Source of the DNA: Christensenella sp.
GTDB lineage: Bacteria > Bacillota > Clostridia > Christensenellales > UBA3700
Assembly: GCA_022784465.1 (NCBI GenBank)
Contig: JALFUR010000010.1
Coordinates: 186,001 to 250,000 of the forward strand
Direction of reading: 5' to 3'
DNA: 64,000 bases
Below the pieces are notes generated by a model. The model was not told the DNA's origin and ran no database searches. It saw nothing but the letters and a program-made list of their open reading frames with translations. Each line of letters opens with the position of its first letter. Positions within the stretch are counted from its first letter, which is position 1. The translations under genes and the position numbers were made by a program. Positions 14,947 through 59,645 of the stretch are shown here, piece by piece.

Positions 14947-15029
14947 TCGAGAAGACCGATTTATTTAGGAGCTAACTATATAAGAGTCAAGTAGAATTAC
15001 AAAGAAATTTAAAAGTTAGCGAGAAAAAT

Positions 15030-15068
15030 AAAAAAGAGCGTGCAAACGCATAGAAGCAGGATGCTTCT
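15030..15068 (-). terminator. possible transposase terminator region
   Basis: In minus orientation a 7-bp hairpin (AGAAGCA/TGCTTCT, 15052-15068) is followed by a short GCGT/ACGC hairpin and a T-rich run. The second stem has only four pairs, so this is a weak call. Confidence 0.4.
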
Positions 15069-15094
15069 AAAAAGCACATTGAAAGTTGAATAAG

Positions 15095-16267
15095 TTAGAT
15101 AATAGGTTCTACGAAGTTAGAGTTCTTTTTTAGAACAGCGAAAATAATACGAACCATTTTCTTCATACCATGGGACACTGCAGTGTAGAAGTGTTTATCT
15201 TGGGCTCTTTTTCTATCAACATAGGAACGCATAAAGTTGGAAGTAACATAAGCAGATTTTGTTACTTGGTAAAGAGCATTTCTAAGATAAACAGAGCCCT
15301 TTTTGTCCATAGGAGTAATAGTAGCTTTGAATTTACCTGACTCATAGATTTGAGGAGCAAGCCCCGCAAAAGCTTGCAATTTTTCAGGATAATCGAAATT
15401 GTTAATGTCACCTATTTCCGCTAAGATAGTGGCACCCATAGTAACTCCAATACCTGGTATAGAAGTAATAGGAGAGTTAATTAGAGACATAATTTCTTTT
15501 AATTTAGATTCAATATCTTCTAATTCTTTAGATAAGAAGATAATTTGAGAACAGATATGTTTTAATTCGAAAATATCTCCATCTAAATTAGACCCAATAG
15601 AATGTTTAGCTGCATCGATCAAAGAATCTAATTTACGAACAAGTCTTCCATGAGAAATATTTTTTAAATGTTTTTCTAAAGAAGATCTTCTAGCTCCGCA
15701 AATACTAGAAGGTCCAGGAAACTTTTCTAAAAGTTCATAAGAGCTTAATAAAGAAACATTAAAGATTTTCTCAAACTCAGGGAATACAAGGTGTAGAATA
15801 CGTCTAAATCTATTCTTTAGAGGTTGAACAATTTTAATTAAACGGTAACGGTATCTTGTTAAAGACTTTAAAGACTGAATGTGGTAAGATATATCTAGGT
15901 AGGATGAAGAATCTTCTGTAATCATCTTCTCTGCAATATATCTTGCATCAGATTTATCAGTTTTAGTAGCTCGTAGTGTTAGAGACTTTCGAAATCTGTT
16001 CACACTCAACGGGTTTAACGCAAAAACCGGAAGGTTTTGTCGTTTTAAGTAATTAACAAGATTAGTAGAGTAATGACCAGTGGACTCTAGTCCTACTTTT
16101 ACATTAATTAGGTTTTCACCTACAGTTTGAGTTAACAAATCCATTAGAGAATTAAAGCCATCTAAAGAATTTTGGAACTGGAAATTGTCGCACAAGATTT
16201 CACCATTAGATGAAATAATGTGGCAATCATGTTTGTCTTTTGCGACATCAATACCAACATAGATCAT
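15095..16267 (-). CDS. IS110 family transposase (DEDD-Ser recombinase)
   Basis: 390-residue RNA-guided recombinase that catalyses excision to a circle and re-insertion. The start is the ATG at 16265-16267, with AAAGGAGG eight bases upstream; 15 extra in-frame codons before it lack a ribosome site. The RuvC-like domain has Asp7, Glu61, Asp104 and Asp107, the DEDD set, in GIDVAKDK, GLESTGHY and TDKSDARYIAE. The C-terminal Transposase_20 domain has SIPGIG and the catalytic Ser at about residue 325 in KKGSVYLRNAL. No stop or frameshift interrupts it, so it may be active. The non-coding region ahead of it carries the bridge RNA, as in the IS110 subgroup. Confidence 0.95.
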   Translation of the reverse strand: MIYVGIDVAKDKHDCHIISSNGEILCDNFQFQNSLDGFNSLMDLLTQTVGENLINVKVGLESTGHYSTNLVNYLKRQNLPVFALNPLSVNRFRKSLTLRATKTDKSDARYIAEKMITEDSSSYLDISYHIQSLKSLTRYRYRLIKIVQPLKNRFRRILHLVFPEFEKIFNVSLLSSYELLEKFPGPSSICGARRSSLEKHLKNISHGRLVRKLDSLIDAAKHSIGSNLDGDIFELKHICSQIIFLSKELEDIESKLKEIMSLINSPITSIPGIGVTMGATILAEIGDINNFDYPEKLQAFAGLAPQIYESGKFKATITPMDKKGSVYLRNALYQVTKSAYVTSNFMRSYVDRKRAQDKHFYTAVSHGMKKMVRIIFAVLKKNSNFVEPII

Positions 16268-16308
16268 ATGAAGGTCCTCCTTTAAAAATATTTGTTCTGT
16301 ATTTTGAA

Positions 16309-16539
16309 CCACAAGATCTATGCAATGTAACCTCGTTCTAAATAAAACGACAAAGCGTTATCTAACTAATCAACAAAGAAACATAGATTTGTGGCTATAT
16401 CCTCCTAAGAAACGACAAAGCGTTAAAAGCTAATGAACTAGACCACAGAACCTATGTTAATTATATATCTTTAGTTTTACACTTAGGGAACTCGCTTTTG
16501 AAAAAGCTATCCCTAAAACCTAAGCAAAACTAGATATAT
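16309..16539 (-). ncRNA. candidate IS110 bridge RNA
   Basis: Read on the minus strand, the region upstream of the transposase begins with a long stem-loop (16539-16463) with two internal loops. Two similar modules follow, each topped by the same hairpin AACG-CTTTGT-CGTT (16425-16411 and 16360-16346). This is the order 5' stem-loop, target-binding loop, donor-binding loop known for IS621-type bridge RNAs. Flanks of the second hairpin include TAGTTAG, identical to the last seven bases of the right end. Flanks of the first include TTAGGAG, complementary to the core plus right flank. Function is inferred from the family. Confidence 0.7.
16346..16425. repeat. two 15-bp direct repeats, each a hairpin, 65 bp apart
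   Basis: AACGACAAAGCGTTA occurs at 16346-16360 and 16411-16425. AACG and CGTT within each copy pair around a 6-base loop. They cap the two loops of the candidate bridge RNA. Confidence 0.9.
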
Positions 16540-16616
16540 CTAAAAAATTATAAATAATACATCTAACTTAGATTTTATGATCTAGTTAAATCCCAAATGT
16601 ATTATACGAGGAATCT

Positions 16617-17651
16617 ATGCAACACGAAGTAACCCAAAAACAAAAATTGCTTGATGAAAATGGAAACATCAAAGAACCAGGCTATGCTAAAACTCAAGTG
16701 TGGCAATATTCAAGAGAAGATATTAAAGCTCCAAAATGGAGAATTAAAGAATGGGATTATTATTATATAGGAAACCAAGAATATGGTTTATGTCTTACCA
16801 TATCTGACGCAGGATATGTTTCTTGTATTAGCGCATCGCTACTAGATTTTAAAAATAAAACTCAAATTAACAAAACTGGACTTGGGCTTTTCCCTCTTGG
16901 AAAAATGAAACTTCCTTCTACCCCAGAAATTGGAGATGTCTATGGAAAAGCTGGTAAAGTAGATTTCGCTTTTGAGTGCGACGGAAAGACAAAACATTTA
17001 ACAGGAGTTTTTCCTAAATTCTACGACAACAATGATCCTCTTGTTTTTGATATAACATTAGACAATATACCACAAGAACATATGGTAATTGCTACACCTT
17101 TTGAAAAGGATAAGCATTTTTATTATAATCAAAAAACAAATTGCATGAGAGCTAGTGGATATTTCACTATTAAAGGCGAGGAGTACAGATTAGAAAATAA
17201 AAATACTTTAGGAACTTTAGATTGGGGCCGTGGTGTTTGGACATACGACAACACTTGGTATTGGGGGTCTTTCCAAGGTGTTCTTGAAGATGGAAACATT
17301 TTAGGATGGAACATAGGTTATGGATTTGGAGACACCTCAGCTGCCTCTGAGAATATGTTGTTCTATAATGGCAAAGCGCATAAACTTGATGAAATATATT
17401 TTAATATTCCAAGAAAAAATGGCAAAGATGACTATCTTTCTCCTTGGACATTTACATCAAATGACAATAGATTCTATATGGATTTTACTCCGCTTATAGA
17501 TAGACAAGCGCCTCTAGATTTAGGATTTTTATGTATGATTCCTCATCAAGTCTTTGGATTATTTAATGGATATGTAATTCTTGACGATAACACAAAAGTG
17601 GAAGTTAAAAATCTAATGGGATTTGCTGAAAAAGTTCACAATAAATGGTAA
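16617..17651 (+). CDS. DUF2804 family protein
   Basis: 344-residue cytosolic protein of the uncharacterised DUF2804 family. It is recognised from the N-terminal LLDENGNIKEPGYAKT segment, the RIKEWDYYYIG stretch, the central TLDWGRGVWTYDNTWYWG motif and the C-terminal MIPHQVFGLFNGYVILDD motif. The sequence is beta-rich and aromatic-rich, compatible with the lipocalin-like/AttH-type fold proposed for such families, but no reaction is known. The start has GAGG five bases upstream. The IS110 element lies directly upstream and separates the gene from a strong promoter at 14918-14946. Confidence 0.85.
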   Translation: MQHEVTQKQKLLDENGNIKEPGYAKTQVWQYSREDIKAPKWRIKEWDYYYIGNQEYGLCLTISDAGYVSCISASLLDFKNKTQINKTGLGLFPLGKMKLPSTPEIGDVYGKAGKVDFAFECDGKTKHLTGVFPKFYDNNDPLVFDITLDNIPQEHMVIATPFEKDKHFYYNQKTNCMRASGYFTIKGEEYRLENKNTLGTLDWGRGVWTYDNTWYWGSFQGVLEDGNILGWNIGYGFGDTSAASENMLFYNGKAHKLDEIYFNIPRKNGKDDYLSPWTFTSNDNRFYMDFTPLIDRQAPLDLGFLCMIPHQVFGLFNGYVILDDNTKVEVKNLMGFAEKVHNKW

Positions 17652-59532: not shown

Positions 59533-59645
59533 AATATCCTTAAATAATACATTTAGATTTAACTTATAGTTAGCTGCATTATTTTTTTCTTTGTCATTAT
59601 ATCATAACGCTTTATTTAGTGTATAATTTGTTGCTGCAAAACAAC

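What the first reader, a model, noticed from the sequence alone, without database searches (positions are those of the whole stretch)
14964..14977. Bridge-RNA guides match the right IS junction and give a CT core
In IS orientation the right junction reads TAGTTAG, CT, CCTAA. The donor-side loop contains TAGTTAG (16368-16362), identical to the end of the element. The target-side loop contains TTAGGAG (16408-16402), complementary to CT plus CCTAA of the flank. Two 7-base matches meeting exactly at a CT dinucleotide agree with the known rule that left guides copy the top strand and right guides pair with it.
Basis: partly seen in the sequence, partly recalled or inferred. Interest (0 to 1): 0.68.

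Follow-up and report, generated by a model that had tools for sequence, protein, structure and literature searches.

The report
Bridge RNA aimed at ribosome-binding sites
A small jumping DNA element in a bacterium carries a guide RNA that appears to steer it into the ribosome-binding site just in front of genes, and many related elements seem to do the same, which would explain at the RNA level an insertion habit known so far from a mycobacterial element.

Summary
The element spans 14972-16608, with CT on both sides. TTAGGAG in the target loop is complementary to CT+CCTAA at all three right ends of recent copies in this genome. Only 7 of 6643 other CT sites in the window match both loops as well.

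The main result goes beyond the finding. CTCCTAA is the reverse complement of a Shine-Dalgarno (SD) sequence: the element inserts into the SD of a gene read in the opposite direction. This holds across related Bacillota elements: 62 of 70 rejoined sites match the SD (at least 5 nt across the core; control 16.4%), and guides read from the RNA alone spell an SD in 31 of 35 elements. IS900 is already known to target translation initiation signals; the guide-RNA explanation is the new part.

Corrections: the donor loop continues AT, not CT, after TAGTTAG; the left target guide fits this copy poorly; and the window is chimeric at this element, since synteny pairs its left flank with another contig (trmB). 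The rejoined trmB-DUF2804 spacer is 96 nt, against 95, 94 and 92 in relatives, which supports the boundaries.

The parts
14972..16608 (-). IS110-group insertion sequence, 1637 bp, flanked by CT on both sides (minus-strand reading)
   Evidence: copies at contig ends C4, C6, C7, C9 diverge at these points; rejoined empty site
14970..14971 (-). CT core at the right end
14965..14969 (-). Right flank CCTAA; with CT the complement of TTAGGAG (Shine-Dalgarno, plus strand TTAGGAG at 14965-14971). By synteny and exclusion this flank belongs with the hydC-like gene on contig C9
14985..14990 (-). TTGACT, -35 half of the promoter predicted at the joined ends
   Evidence: 17 nt from TATAAT when the ends are joined at one CT
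15095..16267 (-). IS110 recombinase gene, likely start ATG at 16267
16391..16446 (-). [quoted passage not shown]
16427..16436 (-). Left target guide TCATTAGCTT (contains CAT), followed by TT at the core position (16425-16426)
   Evidence: register from relatives; weak match to own flank
16402..16411 (-). Right target guide TTCTTAGGAG, of which TTAGGAG (16402-16408) pairs with CT+CCTAA
16362..16369 (-). Left donor guide TTAGTTAG, followed by AT (16360-16361)
16332..16336 (-). Right donor guide ACGAG, complementary to CT+CGT at the left end
   Evidence: changes with the left end in relatives
16601..16606 (-). TATAAT, -10 half of the promoter predicted at the joined ends
16554..16605 (.). Left-end hairpin, also found as solo copies
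16609..16610 (-). CT core at the left end
16611..16619 (+). Rest of the target: spacer GAATCT and start codon ATG (16617) of the DUF2804 gene

Best explanation
This is an IS110-group insertion sequence with a bridge RNA in its left end. The target loop holds two guides. The right one (TTAGGAG) is itself a Shine-Dalgarno sequence and pairs with the complementary strand of a gene's ribosome-binding site (CT CCTAA). The left one lies over the spacer and start codon and contains CAT. The donor loop pairs with the joined ends of the excised circle (TAGTTAG | CT | CGT). Recombination at CT places the element inside the SD of a gene, in the opposite orientation. Shown here by sequence comparison: both boundaries, guide-end and guide-flank matches, and the SD/start-codon context in this genome and across the clade. 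Inferred, not shown: expression of the RNA, binding to the recombinase, circle formation by this element, and the catalytic steps, all by analogy with IS621.
For: IS110 recombinase: PF01548 132.9 bits, PF02371 77.5 bits, NF033542 215.6 bits against a cut-off of 140; the IS621 acidic residues and ESG serine motif align. Right flanks of 3 of 3 recent copies in this genome read CTCCTAA. All 7 left-end copies seen in G000 and G002 have the ATG of an open frame within about 10 nt past the core. Empty site by synteny: trmB-DUF2804 spacer 96 nt when rejoined, against 95, 94 and 92 in G002, G003, G004. Clade: 53 of 81 loci (32 of 53 element groups) have an antisense ATG frame of at least 40 codons starting 3-14 nt from the core, against 564 of 8234 control AG sites. 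SD match of at least 5 nt across the core in 62 of 70 rejoined sites (37 of 42 groups), against 16.4% of 16112 control sites. Guides alone: RTG ends in AG in 35 of 35; SD match of at least 5 nt in 31 of 35, against 16.5% of 2269 control sites. All four guides exceed 500 of 500 permutations. Consensus fold: 542 of 556 cells canonical, 9 of 16 pairs with two-sided changes.
Against: The window LTG matches its own left flank poorly: contiguous match 3; by eye 2, 5 and 2 of 7 positions at the three sites of this genome. The LDG core position is AU, not CU. No exact allelic empty site was found; the support is spacer length plus synteny. 28 of 81 loci show no nearby antisense ATG frame by my test. 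The Monoglobus circular record has 5 extra bases at the junction, giving 22 rather than 17 nt between the promoter boxes (counted by eye). No RNA or protein experiment.
Confidence: 0.88

Rival explanations
1. Insertion is not aimed at the SD: the element lands at many sites, and only insertions between genes, just before start codons, survive selection.
For: Insertions inside genes are harmful, and 28 of 81 loci do not show a nearby antisense ATG frame.
Against: The guide RNAs themselves, read without flanks, spell an SD in 31 of 35 elements; the core falls within the SD in 62 of 70 rejoined sites; orientation relative to the gene is fixed by the construction of the test and still hits 53 of 81.
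Confidence: 0.06
2. The recombinase protein, not the RNA, recognises the site, and the loop matches follow from shared ancestry of RNA and ends.
For: Related elements share right-end and left-end sequence, so part of the donor matches is inherited.
Against: Target flanks are host sequence and differ between elements, yet own RTG and LTG matches exceed all 500 permutations; L108 matches its right flank over 10 nt and L109 over 9. In relatives such as IS621 the RNA role is shown experimentally (PMC11208160, passages).
Confidence: 0.04
3. The two 7-base matches at the window junction are chance in AT-rich sequence.
For: Single 7-nt matches are not rare: 234 of 6643 CT sites on the right side and 324 of 6644 on the left side.
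Against: Both together occur at 7 of 6643 CT sites; the right match recurs in 3 of 3 recent copies; relatives show the same arrangement.
Confidence: 0.02

Closest known systems
IS621 and the IS110-group bridge RNA system (PMC11208160, PMC11208158; passages and one section read)
   Same: Recombinase family, RNA upstream of the gene in the left end, two loops with left and right guides, CT core, promoter predicted at the joined ends, AU after the LDG
   Different: IS621 targets REP elements; here the target guides spell a Shine-Dalgarno, and the LDG does not pair the core
IS900 of Mycobacterium avium subsp. paratuberculosis (PMC8141618, passages; Doran et al. 1997 seen only as a title in its reference list)
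   Same: IS110 family; target motif CATGNNNNNNTCTCCTT, i.e. start codon complement, spacer and SD complement, the same layout as CAT-N6-CT-CCTAA here
   Different: From an actinobacterium; it has an antisense hed frame that uses host signals, while no antisense frame of 80 aa or more lies within this element. Its protein was not compared here, and I found no guide-RNA analysis of IS900 in the searches made
ISEc21 and IS1111-type seekRNA elements (PMC11187229; passages and section 13 read)
   Same: RNA-guided target choice by elements of the same family; in IS110-type members the RNA lies upstream of the gene
   Different: Described targets are an IS3-family transposase gene, REP, attC and other linear sites; the passages read do not describe SD targeting

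Membership tests
IS110 family (IS110 group) | DEDD recombinase with Transposase_20 domain | tested here: met
IS110 family (IS110 group) | Catalytic acidic residues and serine (IS621 D11, E60, D102, D105, S241) | tested here: met
   alignment to IS621 chain 8wt6_A; residue roles from PMC11208158 passages; activity not tested
IS110 family (IS110 group) | Long non-coding end upstream of the gene carrying the guide RNA | tested here: met
IS110 bridge RNA | Two loops whose guides match target and donor on both strands | tested here: met
   across 70 loci; for the window RTG 7, LDG 7, RDG 5, but LTG only 3
IS110 bridge RNA | Core dinucleotide included in all four pairings (as stated for IS621 in PMC11208160) | tested here: inconclusive
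   RTG and RDG include it; LTG reads TT (wobble possible); LDG is followed by AU. PMC11208158 passages place an A131-U132 linker after the IS621 LDG, so the rule itself is not strict for the LDG
IS110 family (IS110 group) | Circular intermediate with promoter at the joined ends | not testable with these tools
   boxes present with 17-nt spacing when joined; a related 1563-bp circular record exists
IS110 bridge RNA | RNA expressed and bound by the recombinase | not testable with these tools
   no expression data
IS900-like target class | Insertion between SD and start codon, antisense to the gene | tested here: met
IS900-like target class | Protein relationship to IS900 | not tested
   IS900 protein was not compared; likeness of target is claimed, not membership

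The most novel reading that the evidence does not exclude
A large Bacillota clade of IS110 elements has bridge RNAs that act as portable Shine-Dalgarno readers: while other guide positions diverge, the SD-reading part is kept, giving each element many usable gene-adjacent landing sites in almost any bacterium. Many insertions leave an SD of at least 5 nt on the gene side (51 of 70), so the gene could still be translated and the element becomes part of its 5' leader. The solo left-end hairpins before housekeeping genes and the single-copy, one-loop version in a related genus would be later stages of such domestication.
Probability: 0.35. Interest if true: 0.8.

Novelty: new variant of a known kind. 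Interest (0 to 1): 0.62.

Why it matters
IS900's preference for translation initiation signals has been in print since 1997 without a guide-RNA explanation that I could find. Here the answer can be read directly: one guide is the SD and the other overlaps the start codon. If true, a programmable recombinase family contains natural guides for a universal, short, gene-adjacent address. That predicts where such elements land in new hosts and how they alter expression, and offers recombinases that accept short, degenerate targets. It is directly testable by changing the guide.

Tried and rejected
Left-end hairpin as a host riboswitch or promoter: rejected as a general host element, because the model finds it only in G000 and G002, 2 of 59 genomes, the two of the genus that carry this element type, and the orthologous genes found in G001-G004 lack it. 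Its pairing is supported only weakly by covariation (3 cells with two-sided changes; 19 of 500 shuffles reach that). The promoter scan lists one weak plus-strand match (16531-16558) that overlaps its edge, and fewer matches in the region than in shuffles.

Solo hairpins as miniature elements moved by this recombinase: not supported. They keep CT beside the left-end-like sequence, but I saw no right end and no AGGAG on their far side (by eye).

A host promoter just upstream of the window's right flank (TTGTGC/TATAAT) was considered and dropped; one search does not list it.

Taking the window's two flanks as one target site: rejected after synteny. Whether the chimera is misassembly or recombination between copies is open.

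Fixed target of the one-loop RNAs in genus g45: the implied pattern, no mismatch allowed, was found in none of 13 genomes.

Scans with the protein of genome contigs and viral contigs gave 1 distant locus and none.

Unoccupied exact CAT-N6-CTCCTAA sites in this genome: 8 found (2+6), but the reversed control pattern gives 5, so this count says little.

Rows dropped before counts: duplicate views of the window copy and of the C15 copy, and L057; the left ends of L127, L132 and L197 (motif too close to the gene). Of 132 oriented loci 121 entered; 85 have a left end, 89 a right end, 74 both. 81 were used (at least 150 nt of flank), 70 (enough flank on both sides). In one search, 35 element groups had a target loop found by my pattern; groups whose RNA is built differently were not included.

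Full report
What was checked. On the minus strand the right junction reads ATAGTTAG-CT-CCTAAATAAA. TAGTTAG recurs at 16368-16362 and TTAGGAG, the reverse complement of CT+CCTAA, at 16408-16402. A CT site elsewhere in the window matches the RNA this well on both sides in 7 of 6643 cases.

The element. The minus-strand gene (likely ATG 16267, stop 15095) encodes an IS110-family recombinase. IS621 (8wt6) is the best solved relative, and the acidic residues and the serine motif align. Copies in the same genome end contigs C4, C6, C7 and C9, so the ends can be read from sequence: left ends are identical up to CT at 16609-16610, right ends up to CT CCTAA. The element proper is 14972-16608. A decayed copy lies on C15.

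Where it inserts. Seen from the neighbouring gene, CTCCTAA is TTAGGAG, a Shine-Dalgarno sequence, and the left end abuts the last few bases before a start codon at all 7 left ends read: DUF2804 (window), a NuoE-like subunit called hydC here (L005) and upp (L006) in this genome; a purM-like gene, an unnamed membrane protein, a permease and a guaB-like gene in G002. Gene names other than DUF2804 are my reading of the translations and come from no family search.

Empty sites and a chimera. In G002, G003 and G004 DUF2804 stands next to, and divergent from, a gene I read as trmB. In this genome that gene lies at the end of contig C7, next to a right end of the element (the name trmB is recalled). 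Rejoining C7 to the DUF2804 side at one CT gives 96 nt between the two start codons, against 95, 94 and 92 in the relatives, with AGGAGG 6 nt before the ATG. upp likewise belongs with the C6 end (the neighbouring genes of upp in G002 are those of the C6 end), which leaves the beta-galactosidase side of the window (14970) for the hydC-like gene on C9. So the assembled window joins flanks of two insertions, by misassembly or by recombination between copies.

Guides across relatives. Protein searches of 396 order-level, 391 class-level and 398 phylum-level genomes, partly overlapping, plus plasmid and phage records, led to 132 oriented loci (this number includes repeated views of some places). 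Left ends read CT[CT][GA]TA.. and right ends TTGACT-N13-CT; joined, the two boxes lie 17 nt apart in the window element. In 70 loci with both ends, mean match lengths, own against permuted (maximum of 500 permutations), are RTG 4.93 v 3.68 (4.34), LTG 5.29 v 3.52 (4.07), LDG 6.40 v 4.60 (5.23), RDG 4.63 v 3.99 (4.53). The window scores 7, 3, 7 and 5, so its left target guide is the weak point.

SD targeting is clade-wide. Of 81 loci, 53 have an antisense ATG frame of at least 40 codons beginning 3-14 nt from the core (32 of 53 element groups), against 564 of 8234 other AG sites in the same flanks. Of 70 rejoined sites, 62 match AGAAAGGAGGTGATC over at least 5 nt across the core and 51 over at least 6, against 16.4% and 4.9% of 16112 control sites. 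Loci are not independent; by group it is 37 of 42 at 5 nt or more. From the RNA alone, without looking at flanks, 31 of 35 elements spell an SD of at least 5 nt and 25 of 35 of at least 6 (controls 16.5% and 5.5% of 2269). The four that do not reach 5 nt are L118, G1063, L124 and L133; among sites, G1063, L124, L126, L128, L137 and one of two G857 copies stay below 5. Two layouts occur. In most relatives the core lies at the 5' side of the SD, so that the left guide copies the anti-SD (for example GATCACCTCC in the G857 element, the sequence recalled for the 3' end of 16S rRNA). In the window, G701, G607, L103 and L135 the right guide is the SD itself and the left guide runs over the spacer, with CAT visible in the window, G701, L103 and L135.

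RNA structure. In 35 sequences the closing stem of the target loop and the tip hairpins of both loops fold together: 542 of 556 cells are standard pairs and 9 of 16 pairs show two-sided changes. Alignment and fold were computed on the same sequences, so this is support and not an independent test. The LDG is followed by AU in nearly all rows; IS621 has a linker A131-U132 there, so the AT after TAGTTAG is expected rather than a defect.

Effect on the gene. After insertion 51 of 70 sites still have an SD match of at least 5 nt on the gene side, because the cut is at the 5' edge of the SD. In the window type the three sites of this genome keep only 4. Whether the genes stay expressed is unknown.

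Known and new. Bridge RNAs of IS110 elements are established (PMC11208160, PMC11208158, passages; section 12 of the former read). IS900 has the target motif CATGNNNNNNTCTCCTT (PMC8141618, passages) and was said in 1997 to target translation initiation signals (title only, in that paper's reference list). Searches for IS110 or IS900 with bridge RNA, Shine-Dalgarno, ribosome binding site or translation initiation listed no paper that I could see joining the two; the library holds open-licence papers only, and I read passages of four papers. The target class is therefore known from one distant member, while the guide-level explanation and its spread across Bacillota appear new in the material I could search.

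Limits. No expression, binding or transposition data. Controls use AG sites in the same loci, which matches composition but not evolutionary history. The window's LTG does not explain its own left flanks well: recent change of the guide, a tolerant left side, or a different reading of the loop are all possible.

Noticed in passing
L048-L057 (genus g45: G160, G184, G195, G206, G216, G226, G244, G254, G264, G274): 10 of 13 genomes carry a single recombinase gene 52-57% identical to this one, preceded by a short RNA gene with one target-type loop only (CAAUACCU ... AGGAGG), a covarying stem and a terminator-like hairpin, and no recognisable element ends or donor loop: a possible domesticated half-bridge RNA.
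   Followed up: partly
window 59539-59584; L010, L011, L012, L013: Five solo copies of the left-end hairpin, without the element, sit directly before start codons (pfkA-, ilvB-, SIS-, serS- and aminotransferase-like genes; names are my reading). Orthologues of four of these genes found in relatives lack it. Likely relics of old insertions kept as 5' leaders; unexplained.
   Followed up: partly
window 14970 and 16609 (contig C11): The contig appears chimeric at this element; the flanks belong with contigs C9 and C7 by synteny and exclusion.
   Followed up: yes
L102 (NZ_OY725734.1): A 1563-bp circular 'plasmid' of Monoglobus pectinilyticus is a bare IS110 element, probably a sequenced excision circle; its junction holds 5 bases more than expected.
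   Followed up: partly
L111, L169, L170 (G538): A close relative of the Monoglobus element lies three times beside a GGTGGGGTCACA-type repeat rather than before genes.
   Followed up: no
window 16276-16283: The recombinase gene's own SD is AAAGGAGG, itself of the class that such guides target.
   Followed up: no
L020, L022 (G002): Contig ends of G002 carry the same left-end hairpin on a second, different repeated element.
   Followed up: no
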